In this document: positions 15 to 50,986 of the stretch, piece after piece | Layout: each line of letters opens with the position of its first letter | Position numbering within the stretch: position 1 is the first letter of the stretch | Origin: Trebouxia sp. TZW2008 | Lineage: Eukaryota; Chlorophyta; Trebouxiophyceae; Trebouxiales; Trebouxiaceae | NCBI GenBank assembly: GCA_002118135.1 | Contig: BDIU01000229.1 | Coordinates: 62,001-126,000 of the forward strand | Direction of reading: 5' to 3' | Length of the DNA: 64,000 bases | Translations under genes and position numbers: made by a program | The notes under the pieces: model-generated | Seen by the model: only the letters and a program-made list of their open reading frames with translations | Told to the model about the DNA's origin: nothing | The model's database searches: none

Positions 15-3000
15 GAAAGCTCTCAAGACCTTGCTGATCAACTAGCCAGTACCAGAGCAGAACTGGAGCAGATGAGGGAGCAGCAAAGGCGCCTGGAGAG
101 CAAAAACATCTTGCTGGAGAAGTGTCTGCACCTCAATGTCAGTCACGAAGCTCACCAATCCAGAGGGTCTATCCTAGGCGTGCCAGAAGCTACTGCGCTA
201 GCATCAGTAAGCCCTAAGTCTTGACATCGCCGATTGGTGATCAGCAATTTGCACAGGACTCTGCATGTTCAGTGCATGCAGCTCAGCTACATTCATGCAG
301 CAGATGCATGTTTTTGAACTGGAGCAAGGCGTGATTTTGCTGAGTCTCTGGGTGCAAGGCAATAATAGGCCTGGTGATGTGCAAGCTCTACATGTAGAGT
401 GAGCTTGTCATCTTGAGGCCTCTCAGCTGATTAATGCTCGCATTGCCAGTGCACAATCAGCATCTTGTTCAGCCCTTTTGTAGCACAGGCACAGCTTTTA
501 GCTTCAACTGAACCATTTGCAATTTGCTCAGCGATCTTTTGGCCAGTCGGAAGACAGCTACCAGTTTAGCACCAGTCATTTACTGCACAACATACTAGCA
601 TATGTGTATTCAAAGCACTCAAGCAGGCATTCTGCAAGCACTGCTGATGCCGAAAACATGTCACTCAGCACACCGCTGCATGCCGGCAAGTCTTGAGACG
701 TGAAGTTGCCCTTGTGATCAGTTGCAAGCGCAAAGTAATGCCACTTGTGCAGAGTGCCTCCTCAGCCGCAACACAGCACTATGTTAGGCAGGAGGTTCTG
801 GACTCAGAACGGGGAGTAGGGCTGATCTCATCAGTGCGGGGTCCGCCTACCAGCATCACTGTCAGTGAGATTGGCAACATGGGTGTTGAAGAGTTCTCCA
901 GCCTTTGGGCGGTGAGTCGCGAGGCACCCTTTCTCCTTTTATGCCACATTCCTGCCCTGCCCTGCCCTGCCCTGCCCTGCCCTGCCCTAGCCTGCCCCGC
1001 CCCGCCCTGCCCTGCTCTACCCTGCCCCGCCCTGCCCCGCCCTGCCCTGCCCTGCCCTGCAACTCAGCCCGTTATCCGAAACAAGGCATGCTAGGCAGGG
1101 TCAAGACGCCAGCAAGGCAGTTTTGAGTCAACTGCATATGCTCTTGTGCTTGATTTGGAAACCAGGTGTGCACTCATGAGAACGGAGATGTTTCCGAGCA
1201 GCAGTGCTCTGGCAACGCAACTCCAGTACAAAGCCTGTCAAGCATGTAATTTCATGCGCAATTCTTTTGCCTCTCATCTGCCTGCCTAAAGTGCTTCGTG
1301 TTACATCAGTGTATTGACGTATGCAGGAAAACAAACGGCACTGCCTTCCTGACCACCACTTTGCCTCATGGCAACTTTTTGCATCCAGCAAGTTTTGCAT
1401 GTATCACAATGATTGCTGCATCAATTTGCTGATCACAGTGTATTCTGGTTCAGGATTACGTCCAGAGTATTGGCTCATGCCTTACCTAATCATCATGGCC
1501 TGACTACAATGTTTGCATCAGGGCAGTTGCCACTGACCAACATCAACTTGCTTATGCCATGACATTTGCTAAGACAATGCATGTTGGTGCAGGACTACAT
1601 CCATAGCATCGGCTCATGCCTGCTGCAAATGAGCAATGAGCGTTGCAATGGGCCAGCAACCAACCTGATGCACCAGTTGACAGATGAGAGCAGCCGGCTG
1701 TTGGGCTGCATCAAACTGCTGAACCACAAGGTTCATGATGCCATGCTGCATGGCCAGATAGACACCAAGCTGGCCAATAACATCTCCATGGACCGATTCT
1801 ACCCCACATTCACAGTACGGCACACATCCATCACACATACATATTTGCAGTTGGGTATGGCAACAATGTCACAAGATTGTTCCTGCTTTATACATGCCTG
1901 TTTGCAGTCATCATGCTGCGATCTGAATTCATGCTGCACAGTATGTCTTTGCAGGCTTGTTATATTCCTCTTTGCAGCCATTGTGCTTGATCATCACAGC
2001 ACCTTCACAAGATGCCCTTGAATGCTTGGAGTCGAATTCCAAGGACTGTCAAGTTCCTAGAATACCAGCTTCTGTTGTACATGCAGGCCTTGCTGCAGCT
2101 GTCTGATGGTCAGTGGGAGGACCTGATGTTTCTGAGGCGGCTCTATGTCACACGGCGCTATGTGTTGGCCAAGCAGCGTGAGCGGCTTATCACAGAAGCT
2201 GCTGGTTGCATCAACAGCGGGCTGAAACAAGTCCCCCTGCCAGGGAGCACTCAGGTGTCACATCTAGCAGCCCGCTTGGCCAAAAACGCTGAAGAAGACT
2301 ACAGAGTGTACCACAGATGTGGTGCAGCAGGACGGCGTGGGGTAAGCTGTGCAATGCTAGCACCTGTGTAGCTGCTAGCGTGTTTTGTTGTCCATACAGT
2401 TTGCAAGAGTATTAGTTGCTGGTCATTCTTATCAAGCGTGCATGTTGCGCTACTTGTCGGATGTGCTTCTTCATCAAAGTGGTATCATGCATAAACTGCT
2501 GGCTGATCTGTGTTTTCGTGAAATGCGTGTTCAAGCGCATAATCGCCATGTTGTGTTTTTACATTTGTCCCATTGTGCAGACATGATCCTCTCTATTGTC
2601 TGGTTTCAGCAACTTGTATTGCCACACAGTTTTGCTTGAGAACACAGGGTTCGAGTCCTCAGCAATCTAGCAATCAGGACTGAATTTACCAAGCCCACAA
2701 ACTGAGAGCTGATATGCATGCTTGCAGATTTTGAGCACAAAGCAGTGGGCCTTGATCATCGTCCATGCATACCCCTACCTGCCCACTGTAGAACAGAGCC
2801 TACAAGCTTTTGCAGAATTTGGCAAAAGCTCCATGTCAAAGGCAGACATCCTGAAAGCAGCAGAGACAGATAGCATGGAGACAGCCTGGCAAGCGTTGCA
2901 AGAGTACATTGAACTGATTGGTCAACAGAACTCACATGAGTACTTGCCATTGTCAAGCTGCCCAGCTTTCAAGTCACAGGCACAACCTGGGGCTGCAACA

Positions 3001-3057
3001 AGAGCCAGCATGCCGTTTGGTACTGAAGCTGCCATCAATTTACACTACAACATCTGA
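15..3057 (+). CDS. bZIP transcription factor, 3' part (5' end outside window)
   Basis: Exons <15..206, 753..911, 1593..1814, 2087..2341, 2728..3057, all joined in phase 0 at clean GT-AG sites. The first exon carries a leucine-zipper-like coiled coil (AELEQMREQQRRLESKNILL); the basic region must lie upstream of the window. Exon 2 has the short motif VEEFSSLW, which continues into exon 3 (DYIHSIGSCLLQ). Exon 4 has QWEDLMFLRRLYVTRRY, and exons 4-5 have an Arg- and Tyr-rich segment followed by WALIIVHAYPYLPTVEQ. This order, zipper then a long helical C-terminal extension, is what I know from algal bZIP proteins; I infer a nuclear DNA-binding regulator. Intron 2 holds a CCCTG array and a decayed copy of the exon 3 start. 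A DOG1-like or other helical protein is the alternative if the zipper assignment is wrong. Confidence 0.72.
951..1060. repeat. CCCTG pentanucleotide array inside bZIP intron 2
   Basis: About 22 imperfect copies of CCTGC/CCCTG with CCCCG variants. It starts 39 bases after the exon 2 donor (912). It gives long repetitive Pro/Cys/Leu translations in several frames, which are not coding. Confidence 0.95.
1454..1483 (+). repeat. Decayed copy of bZIP exon 3 start
   Basis: The stretch after a TTCAG at 1449-1453 translates as DYVQSIGSCL, against DYIHSIGSCL in the real exon that begins at 1593 after TGCAG. Offset is 139 bp. The copy soon loses similarity, so it is a pseudo-exon within intron 2. Confidence 0.75.
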
Positions 3058-4113: not shown

Positions 4114-7100
4114 ATGCCGAACTGGGCGCAAGTCCGGCAGGACACTCCCGCAGCGCAAAGGGTGTTGCACTTCAACAACGCAGGTTCGCCAGCATGACCG
4201 TGTCTGATGCATCCCAAGATCCCATGCTCTTTCATCAGGCTGCGCACAGTTGCAAAGATTGCCTTTGCACTTGTGCTGTTGACACGTCCCGGCATGCTGC
4301 CAGCAAGAGATGATTGTGTGGTTTTCAGGCAGCGCATTGCCAATCCAGCAAGTTGTCAAGGCGCAGCAAGATTACATAGAACTGGAAGCAACCATTGGCG
4401 GGTAAGCAGCACCATAAACCATGCTGGTAGACAAGACAGCAATAGACAGCCTGCATTTGTGCATGATGACAATATCTGATCATCTTGGTATTGGCAGGAT
4501 TAATAAACCCACAAGTTATCAGTCTGTTACTCATTCAATCAAGCATGGGTGTATTTGCCTCGGTTTGTAGAGTTGGTCAATGAAACTAGGGGTTGTTAAA
4601 CTGATTGATCAAATCAACAGGGTTGATCGCCCACCCAGATTAAGATCTAACACATCAACACTGGACAATGTGGCCATGCATATTGTTGACTGTGACTTGC
4701 AATGTGAAGGTACGAAGCGCTGTCTCAAGAGTCACAAGCCATGGAGAAGTCCTACACTGCATTGGCACAGCTGCTCAACTGCCACCCAGATGAGATTGCT
4801 GTAGTAACAAGTGCTACTGCTGCATGGTACCAGGTACAATATATTCTCTTGACACAGAATGCGCTGATATTCATGAGACAAGATGATTCTCATACCAAAA
4901 TGTCCTTATTTAGAGATACCATTGCTGTCAGAATACAGTGACATGTTCCGAGTTGCCTTGTTCCTGCATCGGATGTCCTAATACTGTTTGTCCTTGTAAG
5001 GAGAAATTATCTTACAGCAACTTCCAGCAGCAGCACTGTTGATCTCATGCCTGGCGATGCTCAATAGTGACACTGTTGCACGGTCCACGACAGGTTTGCT
5101 GTCAAATGACGCAGTGCTCGCAACATAATTTGGCAAACATGAGTGTCAAATTGCTATGCGAGCTTTGTGTCATGTGACGCTCCTGATTGCCATGCGCATC
5201 AAATGCTGAGCTGCAACATTGTTTGCCATCACAACTAAACTACAAAGTGGCAATGAAGCACAGGCAAGCAAGTTGGATGCTTTGCAGGTCTTTGGTGGGC
5301 TGAAGCTGAGCGCAGGAGATCGCATTTTGACCTCTGTTTCTGAATATGGCTCCAACTTTCTAGCCTACCTTCAGGTACATACATTCATGTTTACTCCCAC
5401 TGCTGTTTTGAGTGCAGTCCTAACTTGAAACAGTATTTAGCTGTAGCCATCTGGTTTGGCATGAGCTACTCATCAACTTGTGTAGAAGCAATACTGAAAG
5501 ATTCTCCTCACGCACATCCAATTCGCTGCTGAATCCATTGTCAGCATTGATGCTTTCAGCAAATATACACACCCCTATGTGCAGTGATTGTACCTCAAAA
5601 TGACTTGCTTATTGCATGTTGCGCATTGGCACAAGCCTGTTATTAAATTGCATGGTTTGTCCTGCATCTCAGTGATTCACACTGTCAAATACCACATATT
5701 GTGTATAGCATATTGCTTATTGCAATACATGTGTGATGACTCATTGGTTGCTGTCTCTGTCAGTCAAGCCTGTATTCATGGTTGCTGGTTGCAACAGTGC
5801 AGGCAGTGAAGCGGGATCAGGTAGAGATAGAGGTCATTCCAGAAGACTCTGAAGGTGACATTGATGTTGAAGCCTTAGAGAAAGCAGTGGTGGATGGCGC
5901 ACGCAAACCAGCTTTGATAGCTATCACCCACATACCCACTAGCTCAGGTAAACTACCTTCCCGTGACTCACAACACCAGTCAGCTTACTGCACTTCCTTG
6001 GAAAGTCTTTCAAGCAAAGCTGTTGAAGCATCAGAGAGAGCAGTGATTTACACTGCACGCAAACCAGCTTTGAATTGTCACTCACAGACCTACTAGCTCA
6101 GGCAAACTCTCTGCCCATGACTTTAAGCATCATTCAGCCTGTGGCAACCCCTTGCAGTTTCTTTCAAGCAGAAATGTTGGAGCATCAGAGACAGCAGTTG
6201 TTGATGGTGCATGCAAACCAGCTTTGATAGCTGTCACCCAAGTACCCACTAGCTCAGGTAAGCTTACCTCCCATGACTCACAACACAACCCAACCTACAG
6301 TAGCTATTGCTTATCGAATGCTACATACATGCTGTAGTAGCTGATGCAATCCCTGGAAACGCCCTGCGAGCAAAGCTGCTTACAGCTTGGCGTGCATGCC
6401 ATGCCTGACCCTGCCTGGTTTCTTGAGGTATGTCTTGAGTTTAAGTTGTGATGTACGCGTGTAGGCTTGTGGGCACAAGCTGGGGGCATATCTCTTTGTG
6501 TAGTAAGCATGCAGATAGACACATTGCAGAATTCAGACCACACAAATCTCAAAAGTCTGCCAGAATCTGTAAAAGCCATCCATATTGTTGTGTAGGTGCA
6601 CACACCAAACAGTTTTTTGACACCCTGACAAGTTTGATTGCTATGCAGGCAGGGTGTACACCAATGCAGCAGCAGTGGGTGCCATTGCACAACGAGAAGG
6701 TATTCCATACCTGCTAGATGCTACCCAGTCAGTTGGACAGATGCCCATAGATGTCCAGGAGCTACGCTGCAACTACCTGGTGTCAACAGGCAGGAAGTTC
6801 CTCAGAGCACCACGAGGCACAGGTCTTCTGTTTGCATCAAGGCGAGCTTCTGATTGTGTCATGTCAGGCACTTCTGGTCGATGCTGCCTTTCAGCATCTA
6901 CAGGCAGAATTTTCTTAGCGCATCACAAGGTTTTCTGTTTGCATCAAGATAAGCTTCTGCTTGTGTCATGTCAGATGTTTCTCACATATGATGTGCTCCA
7001 GCAGCAGCTGGGCAGCAGCAATGATTGCAGAAGCACGCAGGGCCTTCAGATGCATCACTGTGCAATCCAAATGATCGAGAGTCAAACGCATTCAGCACAG

Positions 7101-9419: not shown

Positions 9420-12400
9420 ATGTCACTGATCAGGAGCAACCCGGCAGATCAGCTCTCTGCGCCAAAAGCATGTACTGAGTGCCAGATCACAAAGTCTCTG
9501 ACCGACTTTCACCGCAACAGAAGGCTCAGCGATGGGCATGAAAACAAGTGCAAGCTGTGTAGAGCTGAGCAAGATAGCCTGAGAAGAGCCAGCAAGAAAA
9601 CAATACAGCCTTCTGCAAAATCAAAAACATGCAGAGTGTGCAAGGAAAGCAAGCCAGCTAAGGAGTTTCACAGCAACCCGCTTGGTACAGAGGGGCTGTA
9701 TGGCTGTTGCAAAGGCTGCAAGAAGTCTGCTGACGCCAGGAGAAGAGTGAAAGGCCAGCAAAACATGGTGCAACATCAAGTGACTATAGACACATTTGAC
9801 ATGCAACAGGCTGCCCCAGGCAGCATCAGCAGCAGTGACCAGGTAGGAAATGTTATTTGCTGCGCATAGCAAATGAAGTGCAGAGTACGAATACGCTTAT
9901 CCTGAGTTCATGATCATGCACTGCAAACTTGACCTGTCGTCTGAGGTCATCTTGGGTTGAAGCGACCCGCAGCAGCAGCATGCATGCCAAATGGCCGGGT
10001 TGCACTGCCTTGTTACCACTCCTACCAGCTTGAACTGTCTCAGTGGCTTTGCAGCCCACGCAGAATGCCAGGTGTTGCTGTCAGCAGCTAGAATCGGCTG
10101 GAAATTGGTTTTGCCGCACATACAGATTTTTATGAAGACCTGCAGTGGATGCAAGCTCTCTCAACGCTCATCTAGAATTCCCCCAGATCCGCTGAGCCAG
10201 GACAAGCTGCTGTCATACTGCAAGGCATGCTTAGAGAAGATCCGGCTCCACCGTGTGACAGGTGATTGCTGATACCATCCTGCCTGGCAAGCTCTAGCTT
10301 GAACTCAGCATCCCTCTGCAGTGCAACAAGCTCATCCTTTCCTGACATGAGACAAGACCCTTGTTCTTTGGATTGTATGTGACAGATCTGTGCAAAAACA
10401 TAGTGCCTACTCTGCCTCTTGCTGTGGCTCTGGTCAATCAGTCACAATGGCCTGTGAAATGTTTTGCGTGATGAGAATACTGTAGGTCCGACGCAGCATG
10501 CCGCTCTCATATATGCTCTTACTGTGGTTGCTGTTGCATGCAGCCGCTTCCTTCGCTAACAACAATGAACATCACCAAGCACCAGACAGCGCAGCATTGT
10601 CTGAGCAGGTTGCTGAAGATGACCTTGACAGACAGAATGCGACTGCCAACAAGGTGTGCCTGGATTGCACATAACAGTTGCCGTATCACGTGCAAGCACA
10701 TCATCAGCTGATTACTGCAGACAGCCACTGTAGTCACCTTAACAACCGTGCTTACCGTGATGCTCAGAACAAGCCAGCCTGGCAAGATAGGACTTGAGCC
10801 AGACACAACTAGCACATGTGCTGGAAAGTGTGACCCATCATTATTATTATCACTCTCACTTGTTAAGGTCAAGGTGATGGGCAGCACCCATGGCACCCAT
10901 GCCCTACTCACTTCAGCGTAAAAAGTTGCTCAGGCTGCCTCCCGCACAGAGGCTCCTGCTACGACGCCTGACAGCATAGACTTTTATTTTTCTCTTTCCT
11001 TTTCAGCATAAGAAGTTGATCCTTACTGCCATGCTTGCAGAGATGCACAGGCTGCCAGGAGCAAAAAGCTGCCACTGAGTTTCAGTGCGATAAAAGCAAG
11101 GCAGACGGCTTGAGGTCAAGGTGCAAAGCCTGCGAGGCAGTTTCAGGGCAGGCACGCCGCAGGGCTTTTGCCCCAGTTGCCAAACCCACAGTTGCTGAGA
11201 AAGAGTGCAGACGGTGCAAACAAGTCCTGCCTGCTGAGCAAATCTACAGGTGCGTGCTCGTACTGTAAACTGTGCCAGTCCCTGTTGTAGGAGGCTTGTG
11301 GAGCTTGCATAGCACATGTGACATGTGTGTCAGCATTGAGTCTGCACAGAAGTTCTTACAGAATAGCTTGCACCTGTTCGTTGACAAGCTTATGAAAATG
11401 CTCCTGCAGTATAGCTGGCAGGTAATGAGTCATGTAGCCGACCACAGTACAAGGCTGTGTGGCAGTGCGTAATGCATCCAAGCAGCATCAGTTGCATCAT
11501 CATGCTTAAAAGCTTGAGAATTGCAGATCTGACTCTGCAAATGCAGGTGACGCCGTCAAAATTGATGGGGTGCTTTGTGCTGTCAAGCCCAATACCAGCT
11601 CCTCATGAGGTAGCTGGTACTCACAGCCAGTTATGAAAGCCAGTCGTGACAGGGCATTTTTTCGTTGTGAAAGAACTGCTTACACATCTGGCTTTCCCTA
11701 GGCGGCTCAGGGATACTGCGGGTCAATGTCCCTCAGGATTTTAAACTTTTGCGTGGCTGCAGGAAGCGGAAGCGGATAGATGGCCTTGATTGCTACTGCA
11801 AGGCTTGTCATGGCAAGATGGCAGCAGACCGCAAACAGCGCAAACGTCTGTCAGTGCCGTCTCAAGTCACTATCAAGACATGCCAAGTCTGCAGACAAGA
11901 AAAGCCGGTCCAAGAGTTTGACAGTCTCAGGAGCCGTTCTGATGCCATGCTCAGCTGCTGCAGGTGACTAACCATTTGTCACTCTACTGATTTCAGACTG
12001 ATGCCATGCTCAGCTGCTGCAGGTGACTAACTCATTTGTCACTTCACTGATTTGAGATGCTGCTGCACCACTTGAGTTGCTGAGCTCATGGACACCTGAC
12101 AGCTTATGAGCAAGGGCATGACATGTGCTTACTTCTGTATCTTGCGGCGTGCAATTTCCATCAGAAATGGCCATACAAGTGTTTTCAGACCTGTTGTGGT
12201 AGTGTAGCAATACTAGCATAATCCTGCCTTGGTGATTGAGCGTTATTTGTTTCTGTACTGACTTGCCTTGACTCCTGTGGCAGCAGTGTTGCACAAGCCT
12301 CTGTGCTTGTCCTGCCTGCCTATGTATAACAGACTCACGTCCTGGATCCCACAAATAGCATGCTGGTTCTAACAATTGAGCTCACGGTGATGTAGAGAAA

Positions 12401-14536: not shown

Positions 14537-17500
14537 ATGTGCGCCCAGCAGCACGCACAAGGACATTGCAGAAGCAGTTGTATTCTGTATGCAGTGTGCA
14601 ATGTGGTAGCTGCGCCGCCTGCTGTTGCAAAGCCACAAAAAGGCCAGACTTCCCATGTGGATGATGTGGCTGCCAAAGATGCACCACTGAAGTCGCTTTT
14701 CCCTTCTGAGCCCAAAGTTGCAAAGGTCTGCATCCTGGCAGCTTTGCGTAAAAACGTTTCTGCAGAGTAGCATTGTTTGCCACCGGCAGCTTTGTACGAA
14801 AGGGTACCTGCAGTATAGCATTGCTTACCAGCAGCCATGCTTGCCAGCTGGCACTGTCACCTCACCAAGTTTCCGATGGCAGCTTCACGTGAATTGTCTT
14901 ATATGCAGAATGCACCAAAGCTCAAGGTCGCCATTGTTGGCAGTGGATTGGCTGGAATGTCAACTGCTGTGGAACTGCTAGATCAAGGCTATGAGGTAGA
15001 TATCTATGAGCAGCGCCCATTCATAGGCGGCAAGGTCGCCTCATACAGAGACAGGGATGGCAACCACATTGAGATGGGGTAGGATTTGCTGATCCTGTAC
15101 TGAACATACGCTGTGATGGGGCATGATCTTGGCACCCATGCATGTTGATGTCATGCAAAAGTTGTCCAGAGGTGCCATGAGGAGCTAGATCACTTGCCAT
15201 TTGCTTGTCTTACAGCTTGGTTGCTTGCAAACTGCATGCATTCTTTGGCTGCCGCCACAACTTGTTCAGTCTGGCCTCAGGAGCTAGATCATTTGCCACT
15301 TGCTTTTACTTACAGCTCGATTTGCTTACAGGCTGCATGTATTCTTTGGCTGCTACCACAACTTGTTCAGGCTCATGGCCAAGTGTGGAGTGCTGGAGAA
15401 TTTGCTGCTCAAAGAGCACACACATACCTTTGTCAACACAGGTATGCCTTGCAAGTCATGGGCTGCTGGCACTTGTCATCACATGTTTGGCAGAATTTTT
15501 GCTGTCCCTTGCACATGCCTTGCATGTCATGAGCTGTTAATACTTGTCATCGCATGCTTGACACTGTTTTGGTTATGCCTTGCAAGGGGTGGGCAATGCT
15601 GGTGTTCGTCATTACTTGCTTGACATCATTTTTGCTACTGTGAAATACATAGTGCGCTTAGCAGGCCGAGGTCCTGACGCCATGTCTGCCACTTTGAAAG
15701 TCTCACTGTACAAATCCTCACTGTACCGAGCAATTTTACAGTCTAGAATGCAGTAGTGCAGATTGCCTGCTCTTTTTGCATTTGCCACGAGGGTTGCATC
15801 ATCATGTGTTAACAGGGTTGTAGCCTGAATTGCAGGGTCAATTTTGCTAAAGGGTCTGTCTGAGCTTTGATGCTCAGGCACGGATTGTCTCAGGTCTGCA
15901 ACAGCGGCTGAGTGGTGCTGCACAGCCTTGTAATACATATCAATACCCTTTGTGGTATCGATCAAGCTCACTATCATTTGTGAGTCACGTTCAGCCTGTA
16001 AAAGTCTGCAGCATTGAAACAATCTGTCTCAACCAGTCTCGATGCTGCAGACCGCTACACAGCCCTTCTTCATCGTGATCATCAATACGCTTTGTAGCAC
16101 AGGTACTAGTTGTGCTCAGTTGGAGCGTTGTCTTGTCTCTGTGCAGGTGGGGATATCAAGAAGCTGGATTTCAGATTCTATGCTGGTGACAAGAAGATTG
16201 GTGCACCATTCCATGGTCTCAAAGCCTTCTTCACCACTGGACAGCTGAATGTGCTAGATAAGGTATGTCAATGAAACATCAGACCATGACCAGAGCATGC
16301 ATCAGTCAAAGTCAGTAGCCTAGCCTCAGGTGCATGGTTGAAGCTCCTGTATAGTTTGCACTGCCCTATGGTTGTAAGAGTTCGCATGCTGCAACCCATA
16401 CAGCAGTGCAGTGTATGCCTTGTTGCCCTCACAGGGCAGTGCAGACTATACAGCAGCAGCATATGCCGTTCTGCTGCAGCAAACTGCTGCCATTGGCATC
16501 TTCTGCAGTACTTATCAGGTAGGCAACATGTGCTGCATTGTCATAACACAGACGCATGTAGCTCAAAAGCTTTTTAGTTGTCAGCGTCGGTGATGATCTT
16601 CAGCTCAGAAAGCTGTGCAGCCAACCCGTTGGCATTGGGTACCTCGCCCATTGTCAGAGTACTAGTAGATCCACCCTCTGGGTAGCGTAGCGTATCGTAG
16701 TGTGAGAGCGTTGGGCAACTTCAGCTTCACAGACTGGATTTAGCTTTTACCTGTGTTACTTGCAGGCAGCCAACTCATTGGCACTAGGTACCTCGCCCAT
16801 TGTCAGAGCATTAGTAGACCCAGAGGGTGGTATGCGTAGTGTGAGGGCGCTGGACAATGTCAGCTTTACAGACTGGTTCAAGAGCCATGGGGGTTCTGAG
16901 GGATCCATTCGGCGCATGTGGGACCCCATCGCTTATGCCCTGGGCTTTCTGAATTGTGATCAGGTATGTATGTAAGTCATCACTTGCAAAAGGTTTTGGA
17001 TTGTAATTGAACATATCAGGCGGTCATATGTGCACTTTCAACCTTTTCCTTCCCGCATATCATTGCCAATGTCAATACAAACGTTGATTGTGACATGTCA
17101 CTGTGCCTGAACAATGCAGCTGTGACCGCTTCGCATGATTGCAAATCTTCCACATGATAGCTCCTGAGAAGCATCACGGGTTTTGTGTCAGCACAGCTAC
17201 CATGCTGTGCCTGCTTGCTCGAAGCTTTGTTCTCCTGCCCAAGCTGTACTGTGAGGGTTTGGAGTTTGTCTGTCACCACTCAAGCGCCAATATTGACGCC
17301 TGGGTTATGCATTCACACGGCATAGCGCAGCAGCACATCTGACTAAGCTTGTTTACATGTGGTATGATTGAGTGGGCTCACTCACCCGTATCGTTGTGTC
17401 ATGCAGATATCTGCTCGGTGTATGCTGTCCATCTTCCAATTCTTTGCCACCAAGACAGACGCTTCTGTCTTGAGGATGCTCAATGGCTCTCCAGAGGAAC

Positions 17501-21117: not shown

Positions 21118-24100
21118 ATGGCGAAAGCTTTGGGACCTGTGTCTCTGAAGCTTGAGGATGAGGTTCTCGTCAGGGTTCGAAGTAATACAACAATTGTGGA
21201 TCTGCTGGAGCAGCTAGACAAGGCCTGCAAGGGTGGCAGGATTCAAGATGCTGAAGGCTTTGATGTGACTGCACACTATTCACAAGACTTGCCTGAAGGA
21301 GATTATGTCATCAAGCAGCCAGTGTCAGGTGGGCCGACCGATGCTGCAGTCCTCACAGATGTTGCTGTGAGTGGTGTTGAGCAAGACGGCATGAATTGTA
21401 ACATTGGTCAAGCTCTGCTCAATGATTGAGCACTCACTTGTGGTGCGTCTGTCAACCTGTTGTTCTGACCGTGCTTATGTCCCATGCATCAAGGTTCTGG
21501 TCACACATGCCAGTTCAAAGCTGGGCTCAATATGGTCCAAGGTGGTCATTGCAGCTCACACCATCAAGTCAGGGTACTGTGTAAGTCAATTCGCAAATTG
21601 GAACCAGCAGTTACCCATCTTCACTTGCATGCTGTTGGAAAGTACAAGTCAGCCACTGGCTTATGACAGTTCAACCAGCATGGTTGCTTGCTTGAGCTAG
21701 CATGACAGCAATTTGTCTTACGGCCAGCAACCGGCCATGTATGTCAGTGCAGGTCCTCAATGCTGCCCTATGTCTTGCTTGCACATACATAGCTGTCTGC
21801 ATGAGGCTATCTTGTCGAACTTTGTGTGCACCCAAAGCACACAGTCTAAGCATTTGAGCAAAGCTGTACACTTGCTTTTAGACCCACAAAGTTGCAAATG
21901 TCAGGTCATATGCCATGAGACGTCCCAATTGCAGCTGCTTATCTTCTGCATGGCAGGGAAGGTATTGATAAGGAACTAAGATTTGGCACATGTGCTAGGT
22001 TCTGCACCACAGCGAGGTTCCCTACTTGGGACAGTCGAGGCATTCCTAGCTTGCATGCATGTTTACCAACCAGGGTATGGACCATTACGCTTTCTTCTGC
22101 TAATGTAGGCAAAACCAGTGCTGAGGGAGAAGGTGGTCCCTCAAAGAAGGCACGAACAGGTAGATCAAGCTGTGGTTCTAGCAAGCTGTAGCTAGGAATC
22201 AAATGTGCATCGGCATCCTGTGAACAAGACATCTTCTTGCCTTGCTTAGCCGTGGCAGCCCCTCGGAGTATGCAACGCCGCTACAATGCATGTCAAAAGA
22301 GAAAGGTCGTGGTCAGTCGTCAATACAAATGTCTTGCAATATATGCAAAAATGGGTATGCACTGTTTTGGTACTGTTTGCTTTGTCTGGTTTCCTGCTGC
22401 AGAGCGTATTTTGAGCAAAACACCGAGATTCAGCATTTGAGCAAAACACCGACATTCAGCATGCTGTCTGCACAGCTGCTACGTTCTGCACCACAGCGAA
22501 GGTCTCTACTTGAGGCAGTCCAGGCATGCTCAGCTTGCCTGCATGTTTGCCATCCAGGCTATGGATCATTCCGCTCAGTTCTGCTAATGCAGGCGAAGAC
22601 AGTGCTGAGGGACAAGGTGGCCCCTCAAAGAAGGCACGAACAGGTAGAATAAGCTGTGGTTCTAGCAGGCTGTAGCTAGCAATCGTGTGTGCATTGCAAT
22701 CTCGTGGACCACACCTCTGTTTACCTTCATTAGCTGCGGCAGCCCCTCTGAGTGTGCAGACCCACTATAGTCGTGGTTAATAGTTAATCGAAATGTCTTG
22801 CAACATACATCAAAATAGGTACACCCTGTCTTGGCTTTGCTTGCTGAGTCTGCTTTCTTGCCAAGCTATTCATGCAGTGCAGAGCTTTTCTTGAGGAGCA
22901 ATACTGCCTGAGGCAGCTCGATAGCACAAGATTGGGTCTCCAGGACTTGTAGGCTGCAAACAGCAGAATCAGTGCAATCATGACTGTGCAGATGCTAAAG
23001 TTGCGCTTGTCAGGGAGTGTTTGAAGCCTTTACAACATCTTCCTGCAGCCGGTGACTTTTTGGACTTCCTCTTACGCCAGGATGGCCGTAGAATACCTGT
23101 CTCGTTGGAGGCCTTTGATGAGGTATGTGGTTCCTTGAGGCATGTTCATGCCTGTTCGTCAACCAGCCTGCTATGTCTGCATGTGAAGACCCAAATTGGT
23201 GCAGCAAGGCTGATCACATGTTGCTTTGTGACTGTGGCCCCGTCAGGATCGTTGAATCCCTTGCAGGCAAACTTGCCAGAAATTTTGATAGCAGAGTCGT
23301 CTGGAGGCCTTTCACATATCAGCAGTCTTGTGGAGGCAATGCCTTTCCACGGTGGAGAAGAACACACTACTGCAATGATGAGTGCATTCATTCCTGTTGC
23401 TATGCNNNNNNNNNNNNNNNNNNNNNNNNNNNNNNNNNNNNNNNNNNNNNNNNNNNNNNNNNNNNNNNNNNNNNNNNNNNNNNNNNNNNNNNNNNNNNNN
23501 NNNNNNNNNNNNNNNNNNNNNNNNNNNNNNNACTACCTCAGATTTGACTACTCAGGCAACAAAACTGAGAAGAGAAGCAGCAACCCCTCTAGCGCATTGA
23601 GCCAAAGGCTTGACAGGCCAGACATGCTGCTTACAAGCAGTGGCGCAACTGTGTTGGTAGGAGAGGACAAGGTCAGTGTAGCTGGTTAAGTAACAGCATT
23701 GTCAATATACTTGGATGCCAAAGTTTTACGACCTCGTGTTCAACTGTTGTTTTGCAGGCAGAGGGTCACCTTCATGAAGCTGCTCAGGACATTGTAAACT
23801 ATGTACATGGAGGATTTTCAGCACTGCAGTATGGTGCTATCAATTATCTGCCATGCTATGCTGCTGCTGGTCTTGTTGTCAAGCTTGGCATGTTCAATTC
23901 CCTGGGCAAGGTGGGGCCCACCTTTTTGATGCGTGTGATGAACCAGTCATACACAACATGTGACTGCAGTGTTGCCATAAACATGCAATGGAAGTATCAA
24001 ATATGCACATCTGTGATAGACGGCAGGCTTGTCTGAATTGTTTCACTGCCAAGTTACAGTCATTGCATGCATGATGTGAACAGCATTTGTATCATGAATT

Positions 24101-34093: not shown

Positions 34094-37000
34094 ATGAGGG
34101 CCGTTGTCTTCCGCAAGGCGGGCCCTCCGTCGGTGCTAGAGGTGGTCCCCGACTGGCCAACACCGAAGCTCTCGTATGGGCAGGTCAAAGTCAAAATTGC
34201 TGCGACTTCTGTGAACCCGATAGATTTCAAAGCTCGAGGAGGCATGGCCTTTCCGTATCTGTTGAAGGTTCCACATGTAAGACACTCCACTCACTGATCG
34301 ACTGGCAACAGCTGACCCCTGAACGCGTAACGTCTGCAAAGTCACAAGCCAATTCAAATATTACGACCTGTTGCAGCCCAGCTCAATGCTTGTCTTTAAA
34401 TCCTGCCTGCCCAAACAGCTCGACTTTGTGCAGGTTCCAGGCGCTGACCTGGCTGGCGTTGTTGTGGAATGCGACCCAACGAGGTCCAGGGTGAGATTAT
34501 GTACTTTTGCTCGGCAGCCAATTGTTGTTTAACAAGCCTTGCATTGCAGTTCAGTCCTGGAGACCGTGTCTTTGGGATGACTGACTCTTTTGGACCTTGG
34601 AGGCAAGATGGTACGCTTTCCATGCATGTGGCAGCTTTTCATTTTCACTCTTGATTGCCTACATTTTGGGCAGTTTTCCCAATTTGATCATATTTTGACA
34701 CACCCGATCAGACTTGCTGAATGGCCAAAGCATGTAATCTCTCTTTTTGTGCCCTTTGCGCCTCCACAAGTTGACACAGAGCTTACTTAAATTGTGTTGA
34801 CTGCAGGAACCTATGCTGAGTACGCATGTGTGGATGAAAGTCACTTGGCTCACATGCCAGATGGAGTGTCCTTCACAGATGCTGCTGCCGTGCCATTGTG
34901 CACTCTGACAACATGGCAGGTATGACAGTGTTGATGACATTGTTGAATGTTTCGTTATGGCATCACCAGGAACTAGTCATGGGTTGTTGATAATTAAGAC
35001 AGCCAGGCTTGCAAACAAGCCCCAAACAACCACACCCTCAAGCTTGCTGACATGGCATTGACTGCGTAATACCCAGCAGACTGTCTCCAAGGAAGGATGT
35101 GAGTAGCGTTTTAAGCCAAAGCTGCATGGCGCCTCACCTGTGAGACAGCAGATTACAATATCCAGGAGTGCATGCATGTATATGTCAAGTGTCAATTGCT
35201 GCGCAGGCCAGACCACCACAGACAAACTGCATGTCTAACCTCCGATTGCAAGCAATCATTGCGCTCAATCTCAGGCTGCTTTTATTCACAGAAACTCCAA
35301 TCACGGTACCTAGCAACGCAGACTAGTTTACTCTTCCTCTTATTTCTGCCTTGCACTTGCCATTTAAAAGCTTCAAGTCATGCACACAGGCACTATAACA
35401 GGCGCCTACCAGGGCTTCTTCTTTTCCTTTTGGCACTTGCAAAATGCAGGCATCGGCTTCAGCATTACGCAAGCTTCTGCATTTGCACACAGACCTTGTA
35501 AGGGGCGCCCGTCACAGCTTGCCACAGGGTTTCAATCCATGCAGGTTCAAGGGGGTGGGTGACACGGCCTTTTCTTTTCTTTCTGGCACTTGCCATTTGT
35601 ATATACTTGTGATTGCATATAGGCACTGCAGAGGGCGCTTGTCAGTGCTTTCTCTTCTTGTTGTTGCCCTGAATCTTTTGCAGCCTCCTGTCTTTGCACA
35701 CAAGCACTGCAGTGGGCGCCCATCAGAGCTGGAGACAGGGTGCTGATCAATGCAGGGTCAGGGGAGTTTGGGTGCCACGGCCTTTTGTTTCCTTTCTGAT
35801 GCTTCCCACTTCACACTTGATTGAGTTTTGCACACAGGCATTGCAAGCGGCGCACATCAGAGCTGGAGACAGGGTGCTGATCCATGCGGGGTCAGGGGGG
35901 GTGGGCACCATGGCCATCCAGCTGTCCAAGCTGTGGGGAGCCGATGTAGTCACCACCTGTTCCACAGCCAAAGCAGACTTTGTCAAGGCAAGCTTCTTAC
36001 CCTGTCAATGATCTGCAAATCTAGTCTTGTAGATGCGTTACATGGTTTTGGAGTGACTCAATGACCATCCAGTTGGCTAAGCTGTGCAAGCCTATCTAGT
36101 CATGACCTGTTTCCACAGCCAAAGCAGCTTTCATCAAGGCAAGCTTTTTGTGCAATCAGCAATGGTCAGGTGTCTGGTCCTGCAAATGTGCGGTGCACTG
36201 ATGAAGCTTTGAAGCTAGTTCTAAAGTCATCCAGCTATATAAGCTTTTGAGAAGCTTATATAGTCACCGCATGCTCCACAGCCAAAGCAGCTTTTGTCAT
36301 GTTACTCTGCCAATTGGAGTATCTAGTCTCACTTGGAGAACTGGTGGCATAGACTTTGGGGGGTTTTGGCAGTTGACAGGCTGCCTTTGATATGTGCTGA
36401 CAGGGACGTGTCAACTATGTTGCTGAGCATTTGATGAGAATACATGGCTCAATCACTGATGATGTCACATCTGTACCAGTCTTCCTGCGCAAGTGGCTAT
36501 CAAATATGCTGTTGATAAAGCACACGTTTTTGCCCCTGTAGAAACGCTGCATACATAGCAAGCACTACAGTCACTGTTGCTACTGCAGATGTATAAAAGT
36601 TTTGTTGGCTTGCACTCATGACCTGGTCTTCCCCTTGTCATATTGCTGCACAGATGCTGATCCTGTCTTTTTATGTGACCAGCTATATTATGCGTGAATG
36701 ATGCAGTGTCCATGCAGCTTTTGCTTTTGGGGTCAGTCATTTCACTCTGAATACATGCACAAGCTGCTCGTGGCTTGCAGAGCTTAGGCGCTGATGCTGT
36801 GGTGGACTATACCAAAGAAAGATTTGAGGAGCTGTATGCAAACAACCCATTTGATGTGATTCTGGACCTTGTTGGAGGTGAACAGCCATTACCAATTGAT
36901 CTCTTGTGTTGCACTGTGGCTGTCAACATGGTCTGTTGCCCATGCAAATTACGTTCAGATGGCATCCATACCAGCAGTCCTGTTTTGAGCAAGCAGTTCT

Positions 37001-39624: not shown

Positions 39625-42600
39625 ATGAGCGCTCACCCTTACTGCCTTTGTCCCCATGGACGCAATAGCATAACAGGTGTAGCGCAAGGTTCCAAGGCAG
39701 ACGACGTCCTCATCACTGTCCAGAACGACGGCGTTGTTTTGCAAAGCACCGCGCGACAGGTGAAGCGTCTCTGCCACTCATAGCTTGCGCACACATTTGC
39801 GAGCAAGACAATAGGTGCTTGCTCCCTTGTCAACAATGACGCACAGCTCTTGCAATACGATCAGTCAATGATAATTCTGTATTTTGCTCGATTGGCTGGC
39901 AGTCGTCGCAGGATCGCAGCTACACTGGTTGCGAGAACTTACTGCTGCATATGCTTTAACTGCAGGAGCAAGTCATCAGCTGGGCTCTCGGCTCTCAGCA
40001 TAGCAGTTTTGCCACCGCTGCTGTCTTTGCCCCAAGCACCAACGCCTTTCACGCCGTTGTACAGCAAAGCAGCCGGGGCAGTAGCTCAAACTTTCTGCTA
40101 TCTTGGTCTGCTGCTGCACAGCATGGCAGCTTAGAACAGCTTGCGAAGCGGGAATCACTCTCAGGCAGTGTTCATTCTTTGCATCCATTGCCAGCTGCTA
40201 CCAACACCACAGAGCAGGAAGCCGGCAGCAGCAGCTCAGTTGCTGTTGTCTACTCTAATGGTGAAGTGACTTTGGGAGCCGAAGAAATTGCAGCAGCAGC
40301 TCAGCAGCCTCCTGGATCCCGGGTGCTGCATGCTTCAGTGCATGGCAGCCTGCTAGCTGTTGTATGCCATGCAGCGTCAGCTACACATCAGCATACTGTA
40401 GAGATCTACGATTTGCAGGTAAGCTTATGCGAGCATGCAGCCACTGTACATCATGCATGCATGCCCACTCCGGTTGCTAATGTAGATTTGCTTACCCTAC
40501 ATGATGCACCAATGCCAAACATAGGTATCTGAGCGGATTCGTGCAGATTTGTGTTTATCTGCTGCTTTCTGCTGTCTGACTTTGCCGTCAGAAGACACTC
40601 TGTGACGCTCACTCTTATAGATATTGCTGCATTTGCTTCTGGCACACTGTCTTATGTATTGCAATATTAATAACGATAAATGGTTCCAGCACATGTATTA
40701 GGTGTGTATGGCCAAAGTGATGCTGCCTTTTTGCTATTCATCGGCATAACCACACTTGTTGACTTCCACTCCATTGCAGACTGGCACAAGACGCAGCCAT
40801 CATGCCATACCCTCAGATGCATCAGCCAATTTCAAGCTGGTGTCAGCCGCTTTCCAAAGTCAGCAGCTTGTATGTCTGTGGTCAAATGGCCTGCTTGAGG
40901 CCTTCGGCATCCCTGCTGAGCCATCAGACACTGCCCTAAAGCTCAAGACAAGAAGGCAGCTGCTCAATTTTGCCCTGCCAGCCAATGTACTTCCTCATCA
41001 ACAGCCTGTTCAGCAGCAAGCACCAGCCACAGCAGTCAAAGCGCCCAAGTCAGGGAAGAAGCGCAGACAGCCACCCATTAATACTGACACTGAGCAGCAG
41101 TTGGAGCATTTTGCCTCTTCAGCTTCCTTTGTGCCAGCTCTGGTCCCCTTGGGGGGTCACTCTGTCGCAGCTATCAGGGACCCTACAGACGCACACACCA
41201 ACGGACATCAGCCTGCCTCCTTGGAAGTGACAGTGCTGGACACAATGTACGGGTGTGTGCAGTCAGTGGTACCTGTTCATCTCCCCAAAAACGCTAATAC
41301 TACTCGTGCCAATGCTGGTGCTGGGTTTCAATCAGGCAGACAGCAGCAGATACTTAGGCTGTCGAGCAGCGTTGGGGATCTGGTTCTGCTGTCACATGAT
41401 GCTGTCTGGTCAATGTCCATACCGGTGAGCATACCTGCCCTTTGTTGTCACAGGACAGTCAAGTCAGGCTAGTCTTCTGGGTCAACTCTTGTAACTCAGA
41501 TCCATGTCCCTCAGCTGAGGACCAAAGATGCAATGTCTGCTGAGTCTCTTCTGTCACGCATAGAATTGAACAATGAGTGACTTGTTTTCTGCTGTCGCAA
41601 AAGTCTCCTGTGAGCATAATTGTCAAAATGCATCTTGCTGGAGTCTGCTCTGTCCAATCAGGAGACCTGATTTTGTGCAATACAAATGCCAAATTGCACA
41701 GTTTGACAGCTGATTGTCAAATCATAACAGCTGCTCTATTTTTGCAGGTCCAAAACTCATCACTTGCCTCGCTGGTGGGTGCATTGAACCTGCGCAACCC
41801 TGCAGCCAACCCAGCAGTGAAGGCAGCAGTGCAGGCTTTGGGTGAAGAGGAGTGTGCCAGCAGCAGCACACCCCCCCAGCTGGAGCATGCCCGCCCCTCC
41901 TGGACCCAGTCCCTACCCCACAGCAGCCAAGCCAGTACTAGCGGCCGTGACCATCTAGCTATTCCTGCCTCTGTCAGGTACTGTTGCCGACCTGTTTTTT
42001 GGTGTTACACTCTAATGTTGCTGACCTGTTTGTTGGTGCGACACCCATGAGCATCGTTGCAACTTATTTGCTTGGATGCGGTGGTTGTGACCACCTAGGC
42101 ATGCCTAGCATTCTGGGGTACCGATGCTGACTTACATGCTTGGCTGCCCTGTTCAGAACAGCAGTCTAGGACAGCAGTCAGTCTATTACAGGGTGTTATA
42201 GTTGCTGATGTTCTGCTGAATGTTGATGTGCTCTGCTTCAAGCCACCTGTTTCATGTTGTGGACGCCTTAGGACTGACACTTTGGTTCACAACAAGCGAG
42301 CATAAAAAGTCCCCTCCTGCATGCTGTTCTAGCTGGCGCTGCCTCTGCTGGTCACAGCAAAGGAAGTGATTATGCACCATGAGATTATGCTGAGCTCTAT
42401 GCAATGCTGCCTGTGGTCAATAGTTATCCAAACGGCAGACCAACATTTAAAAGTTTACCTGTTGAAGCAGCAGCTGAAGGTCAGCGGTTCATGCTTCATG
42501 CCTCAGTACTGTATTGTTGTCAGTTGCAGTCAAACTCATTGCTGACTCATTATGCAGGTGGCAGCTTGATGCCTCAAGTCAGCAAGCTCAGCTTCTGGAG

Positions 42601-45600
42601 CAGCAGCTGACTCAGCAGCTGAGTCAGGGCTGGCCAGATGAGCAGACCTGCAGAAGCTACCTGGTAGACATGATGCGCACTTGCCAACAGAGCCATGTGC
42701 AGCTGTCTAACAAATTGGTAGCCAGCATAGCAGCAGTGTTGGCCAACCAGCAGTGGTGGGGCGCTTTGGACGCCCTGTTGCGGGCACAGGCCTTGCCCCT
42801 GCTGTCCCAGTGCCCAGGGCTGGTTCATGCCATTGTGCAGGGGGGGCATTTCGCTCTCCTGCCTGTGATCCTCCCAAAGGTACAGGCTGTACACAAACTT
42901 TTGGATTGTGAAATGCACAGCTCACTGCACTGATGCTGTTCCAGTGCCTTGGGCTGGTCCAGGCAATTGTTGAGGAGGGGCACTTGGCTCTCCTGCCTGT
43001 GATCTTCTCAAAGGTAAAGCTTGTCCTCGTTTTACAGGACTGTGAAATGCACACCACACTGCAATTGATGCTGTCAGTGTCTAGGGCTAGTACAGGCAAT
43101 TGCTAAGCGGGGCTATTTTGTCCTTCTGCTTGTCATCCTCTCGAAGGTAAGCCACCGGGTTTTGTTCCTTTTTTTTTGCGTAGCACCAAGGTCTTGCCTG
43201 GACGCTTGGTTTCAGTATTTGGCATCCCTCTGACGGTGTTTTGCAGGTTCTGGACAGCAGCAAGTCTGACACAAAACCTACGCAGGATTTTGTAAGGCAG
43301 CTTGAAGAACATTCAAAACACCTTCACAAGGCTCTGTGCTCTCCTGACAAATGTCACTTGTCTTTGCATACCCCAGCTGTTTTTGCCTGCCACAGCTGCC
43401 ATGACTGCGCACTGCTGGCACCACCGCAAAAAGCTCCCTGCATGGCGGTGGCATCAGTAGAGGCCGCTTAAAGCACTTGCCTGGCGCGCATCAAGGCAGA
43501 CGGGGAATCATATGTGGCTGTGTGCTCCCATGACTTGACAATGCGCTTGTCTATGTTGCAGGCCAAGGACATACCCAGGAATGAGCTTCTCCACATGTTG
43601 AAGCTGTTGCTATCCCCTGCCACAGCTGCCATGACTGCGCATTGTCGGCACCACCGCACCAAGCTCAAGGGCATGGCAGTGGCGTCAGTAGAGGCTGCTG
43701 AGAGTGCTTGCCTAGCGCACATCAAGGCAGAGGGGGAGTTGTCTGTTGTGGATCAAACACTGCAAGACAAGGTTGCCAGGGCAGCGTTGGAAGCTGCTGC
43801 AGTTGATGGTTTGTCTGCACAGGTAACACCAACAAAGGCTGCAAGTAATTTGTGGCAAACGTACAATATTTGGAATGTCACAAGCGGCAGCATGCTGCAG
43901 ATTCAATAGCGTGTGCCCCAACATGAGCTGTTGGCTCACAATTGACTAAAGAGTTTGCAAAAGACAGCTGTAAGGGCATTTTTGATCAAGGCTTGCAGTT
44001 GACTACCAGTTGGTTGCAGATGGACTGTGCTTCCAGGTCGTGCTAATGGCGCCTGCTGTTACTGGCATTGACTGCTCTGATTCTGCATTTGCTCATGCTC
44101 CACAAACGTTGTTTGCATGATGGCGCTCACAGCTGCATCACATGAATGCAAACTGCCAAAATACCACTGCACTCTGTTGCATGCTCACTCAAGTCCAAGC
44201 TTCGTTATGCCCATTCCAGGGTCAAAAGCGTTTGTGGCAACAGCATAGACAATAGTGAGCCAGCAAAAACCTGATGCTAGATTTGGCACAATACAGCTTG
44301 ATACAGCTTGGCACCCTTTCCTCTGTTGTGCAATATCAGCAGCCATTTTCTGTCCGCTCACTGCAAAGCATCCTTACTTGGATGAATGGTTGATGTAACT
44401 TGGTCTGAGCCTGTGCAGGAGGTGTGCTTGCATCCGGTTGTAGGCATGACACTGGACTCAGAGTTACTGACCTCGGCCCCTTGCCAGCTGCGTATGGCAT
44501 AGGCCAGCAGCAGTATTAACATGGTCAGCTCAGTACCCAAGCTATGCTAACAGCTTGTTCTGGTCTCGTGCAGGAGGTGTGCTTGCATCCGGTTGTGGGC
44601 ATGACACTGGATTCGGAGCTCCTCACCTTAGCCCTTCGCCAGCTGTCTCTGCCTCAGGCGCTCAAGCTGGCAGAGTATCTTCTGAAGCTGTTCAGCAAGT
44701 ACACAGGTGCAGTCATGTTCCATTCGCCCTGATAACGATTGCTTTGGGTCTTTAGGCATTTGATCTGATGCTAAAGTGCGCGTACTGAGAGATGTTGCTG
44801 CAGCCAGGATGCAGTGGTTGCTTTCTCAATGTACTGTCCTTGCAGAGTTGCTGCTGCTTGAGCATACAATCACTCATGCATCACTGCACCTCAGCAGCTC
44901 TCAAGCATGGCGGTGCAACCAATGCTGGCAGATCAGCAGGACATGTGCCCGAGTCACCTAGCGAGAGAAAAGAAAAGTCTATGCCGTTAGGCGTCATAAC
45001 GGGAGCCTCTGTCTAAAGAGGCAGCCCGGGATCCTGCAAGCATGCCCACGCTTGCTGTGTGCCATGGAATGGTGCAATTGGTTCTGGTCACCCAAATGGA
45101 TGTCATCAGACTTTTTATTCAGTTACTGATACTCTGATGATGTGTGCAGAAAATCTGGCTGAGCTGGGTCCCTCATCGTCAAACAAAGTCAAGATGCAGT
45201 TGCGTATTCCCAGGATGCAGCAAGTATTGGAGTGGCTGTGCTTGCTGTTTGATGCTCATATAACCTCCTTTCATCGACAACAAGGCTGTCACAAGGTGAG
45301 GATTAACAGGATGCCGTGTTTGCACCACATGGTACAGTCAAACATCTGCACCTTCAGTGGTTGTTAAGGCTTGTTCGTCGCAAGCGAGACTTTCCAAACA
45401 TGTGGCATCCACGCTGGCATGTGCAGAAGGGTGCTGCGTGCTTGTGAGCTCAGGGGATATCAACAATTGGCATTCTGCCAAGATTTGGCAATAACGTGCT
45501 TACAGAGTATGCTATGTGTTTGGCACCGTGATCACAGGCTATTCTCACAGCCTGCTTCACTGGTTTGCAGGTATTGAAGCAGCTGCAAGATTTGGTCCAG

Positions 45601-50981: not shown

Positions 50982-50986
50982 ATAAG

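What the first reader, a model, noticed from the sequence alone, without database searches (positions are those of the whole stretch)
1454..44706. Window-wide tandem copies of exon edges inside introns
Seen directly: introns of at least seven unrelated genes (bZIP, aminotransferase, Cys4, ZDS, Crinkler-like, oxidoreductase, NOL11-like) hold direct copies of the start or end of a neighbouring exon with its splice site. Stages run from intact (42945, 43078, 22593, 6158, 13006) through stop-containing (44419, 43360, 16618) to barely visible (35376). This looks like an ongoing local tandem-duplication process that lengthens introns and generates alternative exons. I do not know of a green-alga genome described this way.
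Basis: partly seen in the sequence, partly recalled or inferred. Interest (0 to 1): 0.8.

Follow-up and report, generated by a model that had tools for sequence, protein, structure and literature searches.

The report
Decaying tandem copies around algal exons
The introns of this green alga hold worn-down copies of neighbouring exon ends because short stretches of its DNA were duplicated side by side at many places in the genome; the copies look like neutral leftovers, and almost none look recent.

Summary
It is not window-specific: 19 unselected 10-kb stretches hold 73 clusters, 12% of their bases; an approximate dinucleotide shuffle gives none.

The reading changes in three ways. (1) Exon edges are barely special: after dropping one of each duplicated predicted exon, 50 of 95 clusters span an exon-intron border against 42.9 +/- 3.9 for shifted annotation, and exon share equals the null. 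(2) The copies decay neutrally (codon positions; splice dinucleotides kept in 46 of 60); four annotated Trebouxia NOL11-like proteins lack the extra copies. Alternative exons are not supported. (3) It does not look ongoing: of 117 non-redundant pairs none has K<0.06 and 10 have K 0.06-0.12, about 41 expected in each range, though planted young copies are found.

Best explanation: gene-blind small tandem duplication, commoner in the past, with splicing keeping the original exon. The molecular origin is inferred.

The parts
1424..1482 (+). intronic copy of acceptor plus exon start (original 1564-1621, acceptor at 1593)
   Evidence: 78% identity
5864..5976 (+). original end of an aminotransferase exon with donor at 5948
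   Evidence: exon model; Pfam Aminotran_5
6021..6286 (+). two intronic copies of that exon end (period about 155; second copy 6174-6286, 86% identical)
   Evidence: single locus in genome
6897..6974 (+). intronic copy of the next aminotransferase exon end (original 6783-6867); donor lost in the copy (AAG|AT), original donor is GC at 6842
   Evidence: 78% identity; ORFs of relatives P0016-P0018 end exactly at this donor
15180..15373 (+). tandem pair, period 99, around the acceptor of the exon predicted at 15332-15441
   Evidence: 85% identity
16617..16737 (+). intronic copy of the ZDS exon start (exon predicted 16766-16963)
   Evidence: 77% identity; Pfam Amino_oxidase
21986..22861 (+). duplicated 484-bp unit holding a whole 51-nt predicted exon (22109-22159 and 22593-22643)
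   Evidence: 75% over 412 nt
35376..35782 (+). four worn copies (35376, 35482, 35609, 35693) of the acceptor and exon start of the zinc-dehydrogenase exon
   Evidence: in one the acceptor AG is AA; array single-locus in genome
35838..35987 (+). original zinc-dehydrogenase exon (ALQAAHIRAGDRVLIHAGSGGVG...), GC donor at 35988; the HMM wrongly starts it at 35756
36061..36299 (+). two worn copies (36061-36149, 36228-36299) of the end of the same exon
   Evidence: 81% and 79% identity
42800..43150 (+). array of about 2.5 copies, period 134: end of NOL11-like exon 42558-42879 plus two in-frame copies in the following intron (42963-43013, 43096-43146)
   Evidence: copies absent from four annotated Trebouxia proteins; single locus in genome
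43386..43506 (+). intronic copy of the interior of the next NOL11-like exon (43616-43737)
   Evidence: 84% identity
44399..44490 (+). intronic copy of acceptor plus exon start (original 44554-44645, acceptor at 44574)
   Evidence: 84% identity

Best explanation
Short segments (mostly 60-230 bp, median period 128) were duplicated head to tail at many places in this genome, with little regard to gene structure. Where a duplicated segment spanned an exon border, splicing that kept using the inner (original) site left the protein unchanged, so the extra exon edge became intron and decayed neutrally; repeated rounds gave arrays flanking an exon on both sides. Shown here: abundance, direct orientation, period, single-locus nature of the arrays tested, near-random placement with respect to exons, neutral decay in the pooled data, outward location. 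Inferred: the molecular origin, most likely end joining of staggered breaks (two nicks on opposite strands) with fill-in of the overhangs, rather than a transposon. The age spectrum says that duplication was more frequent in the past than lately, or that the assembly has lost the youngest copies.
For: In the 19 stretches 169 direct pairs (167 under 1 kb) against 16 inverted, 13 of the 16 being hairpins under 50 bp; 0 pairs in shuffles. Period and cluster counts. Of 7 non-transposon arrays searched genome-wide 6 match only themselves or their own array, one (L015) has one 76% partial hit elsewhere. Placement: exon share of repeat bases 0.239 against 0.236 shifted, after dropping one of each duplicated exon. 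Neutral decay: divergence between exon and intronic copy 0.150/0.128/0.219 at codon positions 1/2/3, ratio 1.58 (95% 1.40-1.77), as expected for one constrained and one free copy; splice dinucleotide kept in 46 of 60 unused copies. Outward: used donor upstream 21 of 30, used acceptor downstream 23 of 30, among sites whose other copy is in intron. Staggered-break origin of small tandem duplications in other species: PMC8355091, abstract and introduction read.
Against: With the full annotation the border excess is significant (56 of 95 against 45.8 +/- 4.4, p=0.0125; 47 of 73 against 35.9 +/- 3.6, p=0.002, 19 stretches only), and still 50 of 95 against 42.9 +/- 3.9 (p=0.045) after pruning, so a small real preference is possible. 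Repeats are under-represented in predicted intergenic DNA (0.056 against 0.138 +/- 0.032) and over-represented in intron (0.706 against 0.626 +/- 0.031) after pruning. Clusters are unevenly spread (0 to 10 per 10 kb, variance 10.1, mean 3.8). In 25 cases the used donor is upstream but the other copy lies in predicted exon, which may be worn copies called as exons or real ones. Exon models come from my own HMM, which mis-starts at least one exon (35756 instead of 35838). No junction could be read at base level at this divergence, so the staggered-break step has no direct support here.
Confidence: 0.72

Rival explanations
1. One reading: an ongoing process aimed at, or enriched at, exon edges that makes introns longer and creates alternative exons.
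For: Border excess with full annotation; two in-frame copies without stops in the NOL11-like gene; duplicated 51-nt exon pair at 22109 and 22593; introns with repeats have a larger mean length, 413 against 314 nt.
Against: Excess mostly disappears after dropping one of each duplicated exon; no pair with K<0.06 among 117; codon-position ratio fits one free copy, not two constrained ones; annotated orthologues lack the NOL11-like copies.
Confidence: 0.1
2. Intron gain by tandem duplication of AGGT-bearing exon segments (Rogers model): copies create new introns rather than lengthen old ones.
For: Known in single genes, such as ATP2A1, and in a modified form in a potato RdRp gene (PMC4974935, passages).
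Against: A donor in one copy lines up with an acceptor in the other in only 6 of 336 border comparisons.
Confidence: 0.04
3. Transposable introns (introners) or another mobile repeat inserted in introns.
For: A dispersed element exists in the window (50612-50983).
Against: 6 of 7 arrays are single-locus genome-wide; 0 of 95 clusters match another of the 28 loci in hand, though these are only 278 kb and hold no other copy of the known element either; copies are local and direct.
Confidence: 0.03
4. Repair-mediated capture of nearby DNA by synthesis-dependent strand annealing, as described for primates, rather than end joining of staggered breaks.
For: Same size class and proximity (human proximal events median 147 bp), duplicated splice sites, falling rate (PMC2671141, abstract and passages). 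In 60% of my clusters the aligned part does not fill 0.9 of the period, so strict adjacency is not shown.
Against: That study removed copies within 50 bp, its pairs lie 1.2 kb apart on average and one of its two whole-exon copies is inverted; here 163 of 169 direct pairs are under 700 bp apart and inverted pairs beyond hairpins number 3.
Confidence: 0.2

Closest known systems
Small tandem duplications from staggered double-strand breaks (CST-Pol alpha / NHEJ fill-in; PMC8355091, abstract and introduction read)
   Same: Head-to-tail direct duplication of short segments at single loci.
   Different: Described there mainly as fresh mutations, under 100 bp; here old, diverged copies of 60-230 bp at high density. 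The mechanism is not shown here.
Internal gene duplication and tandem genomic duplication across exon-intron borders (Gao & Lynch 2009, known to me only as cited in PMC4974935; potato RdRp case, passages read)
   Same: Duplicated segment crosses an intron-exon border; the paper also mentions an 83-bp tandem duplication inside an intron.
   Different: There a new intron arose in one gene; here the copies mostly become intron, at about four clusters per 10 kb.
Repair-mediated duplications in vertebrates (PMC2671141, abstract and passages read)
   Same: Size, proximity, duplicated splice sites and exons, intensity falling with time.
   Different: Near-adjacent tandem copies were excluded by construction, copies may be inverted, and 824 were found in the human genome by a method limited to interrupted transposons, so densities are not directly comparable.
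Tandem exon duplication and degenerate intronic exons (Exonize, PMC12343006, passages read)
   Same: Full, partial, inter-boundary and intronic matches of exons within a gene are recognised classes.
   Different: That survey starts from annotated exons; here intron-only sequence is duplicated too.

Membership tests
Small local tandem duplication | copies in direct orientation, close together | tested here: met
   169 direct against 16 inverted (13 hairpins) in 19 stretches; 167 of the 169 under 1 kb apart
Small local tandem duplication | copies adjacent head to tail | tested here: inconclusive
   aligned length exceeds 0.9 of the period in 40% of 95 clusters; the rest may be eroded or spaced
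Small local tandem duplication | unit not dispersed in the genome | tested here: met
   7 arrays tested: 6 single-locus, one with a single 76% partial hit elsewhere
Staggered-break end joining | clean junction or micro-homology at the duplication junction | not testable with these tools
   copies too diverged; no polymorphic alleles available
Intron gain by AGGT tandem duplication | donor in one copy is acceptor in the other | tested here: not met
   6 of 336 border comparisons
Introner | same intron sequence at many loci | tested here: not met
   7 arrays searched genome-wide; 95 clusters against 278 kb
Alternative (mutually exclusive) tandem exons | copy under coding constraint | tested here: not met
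   position 3 to positions 1+2 ratio 1.58 in pooled exon-intron copy pairs; single genes could differ
Alternative (mutually exclusive) tandem exons | copy present in mRNA | not testable with these tools
   no RNA-seq; four annotated orthologues of the NOL11-like gene lack both copies

The most novel reading that the evidence does not exclude
A genome-wide burst: some tens of thousands of 60-230 bp tandem duplications (about 26,000 clusters if the 19 stretches are typical) formed in an ancestor of this Trebouxia within a limited span (most copy divergence K 0.12-0.24) and then nearly stopped, for instance because a repair or replication defect appeared and later went, or because a nicking agent was active for a time. 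The survivors are a datable fossil record of small tandem duplication and of how splicing tolerates duplicated exon edges.
Probability: 0.35. Interest if true: 0.72.

Novelty: new variant of a known kind. Interest (0 to 1): 0.48.

Why it matters
Tandem duplication is a main proposed source of new exons and introns, and proven cases are few. A genome with about four datable clusters per 10 kb would let one measure how often a duplicated exon edge is spliced out, kept or turned into a new exon. The lack of young copies, if not an assembly effect, points to a change in mutation process within one algal lineage. It also warns that gene predictors may call worn exon copies as real exons: mine did in the NOL11-like and zinc-dehydrogenase genes.

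Tried and rejected
Chance or low complexity: rejected by shuffles and inverted control. Transposon or introner: rejected for the 7 arrays searched genome-wide; the one 95% pair, 50612-50687 / 50908-50983, belongs to a dispersed element overlapping a Replitron ORF and was dropped from the K spectrum but is still among the 95 clusters and in the substitution counts. Hypermutation of repeats: CpG-context columns are more diverged (0.41 against 0.15) but hold only 421 of 2709 differences. Born-diverged copies: contradicted by the codon-position pattern. Splicing selection against decoy sites: not seen (46 of 60 dinucleotides kept).

Dating through close relatives failed: ORFs of relatives end at the donor of the aminotransferase exon and so say nothing about the copy. 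The K scale against the nearest relative is only rough: 15 of 107 amino-acid differences in one stretch read as intron (about K 0.075) and 0 of 11 in a second. No other eukaryote's DNA was searched, so whether this density is unusual is untested. The assembly type is unknown.

Rows dropped: direct pairs 1 kb or more apart (from all cluster, border, K and substitution counts); alignments under 50 columns (K, identity and substitution counts) or under 40 (border-direction counts); pairs whose two copies were both already more than half used by better pairs (K and substitution counts). The pruned border test was run only at gene-model boost 5; the unpruned one also at 4 and 6 with like results. 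BLAST as run reported no offset under 50 bp, and it did not report one 59-bp repeat that TRF found at 11939. L001-L008 were chosen by a bZIP search, not at random.
Full report
WHAT WAS CHECKED. The window is part of a 68.5-Mb, 527-contig assembly. An ORF of it matches proteins of Trebouxia sp. C0004, C0006, C0009 and C0010, and a predicted gene matches four annotated proteins of Trebouxia sp. C0004, C0005 (two) and C0010, three of them over 94-99% of its length, so the source is a Trebouxia-like green alga. Self-BLAST of the window gave 27 direct pairs, 24 of them under 500 bp apart, and 7 inverted.

IT IS GENOME-WIDE. I took 19 further 10-kb stretches from 16 contigs (13 of 20 requested, 6 of 6). 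They hold 169 direct pairs, 167 of them under 1 kb apart, against 16 inverted, of which 13 are hairpins under 50 bp; 12.0% of their bases lie in local direct repeats, against 7.0% in the window. Across all 278,357 bases (window, 19 stretches, 8 loci from a bZIP search) the pairs form 95 clusters: 17, 73 and 5. One approximate dinucleotide shuffle of every locus gave 0 pairs under 1 kb against 202. The smallest period per cluster has median 128 bp, range 63-484, 87 of 95 at or below 230; short, old duplications cannot be detected, so the lower end is a detection limit. If the stretches are typical the genome holds about 26,000 clusters (extrapolation). Four of the 19 stretches hold none and one holds ten.

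UNITS ARE LOCAL. Of 7 arrays searched against the whole genome, 6 matched only themselves or their own array and one had a single 76% partial hit elsewhere. None of 95 clusters matches another of the 28 loci in hand, a weak test because these are only 278 kb. The exception in the window, the 95% pair 50612/50908, has 25 further matches on 20 contigs and overlaps the 3' end of an ORF with Replitron domains; it is a mobile element and a different matter.

GENE STRUCTURE. I trained a two-strand exon-intron HMM on the same DNA. It learned donor MAG|GTRAG and acceptor TGCAG|G. Check: a NOL11-like prediction aligns to the four Trebouxia proteins (47-60% identity) with one large gap shared by all four, 34 residues, the length of the two extra exon-end copies at 42963-43013 and 43096-43146; for P0013 and P0015 tblastn runs from 42559-42885 straight to 43544-43822, while P0012 and P0014 have weaker matches starting further upstream (43244 and 43490), beyond the copies. 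The first copy resembles the orthologues best (my reading). These are annotations: they do not show that the copies are missing from the orthologues' DNA. Known faults of the HMM: neighbouring genes merge at low settings, and the zinc-dehydrogenase exon is started at 35756 although its real start is 35838, behind four worn copies of the same acceptor and exon start.

IS THE EXON EDGE SPECIAL? With the full annotation 56 of 95 clusters have a border inside a copy against 45.8 +/- 4.4 after circular shifts (p=0.0125; one search gave 56-58 at three settings, p 0.003-0.007). In the 19 stretches alone it is 47 of 73 against 35.9 +/- 3.6 (p=0.002), in the window 8 of 17 against 7.0 +/- 1.7 (p=0.37). 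But the HMM calls worn exon copies as exons. After dropping the shorter of two exons that align to each other, it is 50 of 95 against 42.9 +/- 3.9 (p=0.045), and the exon share of repeat bases is 0.239 against 0.236 +/- 0.022. So a random duplication cluster of this size touches an exon border nearly half the time, and only a small excess is left. A constrained exon copy that decays more slowly than intron could give that excess; I did not test this separately. Against full blindness: predicted intergenic DNA has fewer repeats than expected (0.056 against 0.138 +/- 0.032) and intron more (0.706 against 0.626 +/- 0.031).

FATE OF THE COPIES. Where one copy is exon and the other intron, they differ at 15.0, 12.8 and 21.9% of codon positions 1, 2 and 3, ratio 1.58 (1.40-1.77). 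Two constrained copies should give a higher ratio, and copies born diverged a ratio of 1; one free and one constrained copy of some age fits. Same-frame pairs with both copies in predicted exon give 13.2, 10.4 and 23.5%. Unused splice sites keep their dinucleotide in 46 of 60 cases, about what neutral drift of one copy gives (my estimate, about 0.77). Of 201 border sites with a counterpart, 94 line up with another predicted edge, 47 with predicted exon and 60 with intron. Among the 60 the used site is mostly the inner one: donor upstream in 21 of 30, acceptor downstream in 23 of 30 (sign test for 44 of 60, p=0.0004). Among the 47, 25 are upstream donors whose other copy lies in predicted exon; I cannot tell worn copies called as exons from real ones. 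Introns with at least 40 nt of repeats have median 312 and mean 413 nt (n=110) against 278 and 314 nt (n=364); long introns have more room, so this does not prove lengthening.

AGE. Among 117 non-redundant pairs of at least 50 columns, K below 0.06 has none, 0.06-0.09 two, 0.09-0.12 eight, and the four bins from 0.12 to 0.24 hold 18, 25, 17 and 23. At that rate about 41 would be expected below 0.06 and another 41 at 0.06-0.12 (10 seen). Planted tandem copies of 60-300 bp at 88-100% identity were found in 20 of 20 trials each. Under a constant birth rate any loss process makes older copies rarer, never younger ones, so either the rate fell or the assembly lost the youngest. Collapse is a weak explanation for the gap at K 0.06-0.12, because the assembly does keep tandem copies with exact runs of 86, 65 and 55 nt. 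TRF, which compares neighbouring copies, gives 24 rows with period 50 or more: 5 match at 90-94% and none at 95% or more, so some arrays had rounds somewhat younger than the K table suggests; at periods of 10-49 bp 9 of 50 rows are at 95% or more. The assembly type is unknown, so the question stays open.

LITERATURE. In the listings for Trebouxia with tandem duplication and exon (3 papers), introns and tandem repeats in Trebouxiophyceae (7) and Trebouxia genome papers (18) no title or abstract start describes this; most of these papers I did not open, and the library holds open-licence papers only. The A48 genome paper has no occurrence of 'tandem' or 'exon' in its main text, and the lichenization paper none of 'tandem'. 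The kind of event is known: tandem duplication across an intron-exon border in potato (passages), repair-mediated duplications in primates (abstract and passages), small tandem duplications from staggered breaks (abstract and introduction), and intronic degenerate exons as a class in exon-duplication surveys (passages).

VERDICT. Real and genome-wide in the sample; exon edges are mostly bystanders; copies behave as neutral relics; the rate seems to have fallen. How the duplications formed is inferred, not shown.

Noticed in passing
window 49730-50698 and 50612-50983: An open 323-aa frame with Replitron HUH-endonuclease and C-terminal domains; the 370-nt stretch at its 3' end, with 76-nt direct repeats at both ends, has 25 further matches on 20 contigs, while the part upstream of about 50607 matched only itself.
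   Followed up: partly
all loci in hand: Strong CpG depletion (observed/expected 0.40) with TpG excess (1.66), and CpG-context columns differ 2.7 times more often between copies: suggests heavy CpG methylation.
   Followed up: no
predicted introns, e.g. donors at 6842 and 35988: About 12% of HMM-predicted donors are GC rather than GT; at 6842 the ORFs of three relatives end where a GT donor followed by a stop would put them.
   Followed up: partly
L009-L027: Repeat clusters are unevenly spread, 0 to 10 per 10 kb (mean 3.8, variance 10.1), and correlate with intron share (Spearman 0.53, p=0.019).
   Followed up: partly
117 repeat pairs in all loci: No pair with K below 0.06 although planted young copies are detected; cause unresolved.
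   Followed up: partly
L009:6258-8615 (-): Open 786-aa frame with a C-terminal chromodomain and no other Pfam match; possibly from a retroelement.
   Followed up: no
window 23406-23531: The only run of N in the window (126 bases).
   Followed up: no
window 951-1060: (CCTGC)n repeat, 22 copies.
   Followed up: no
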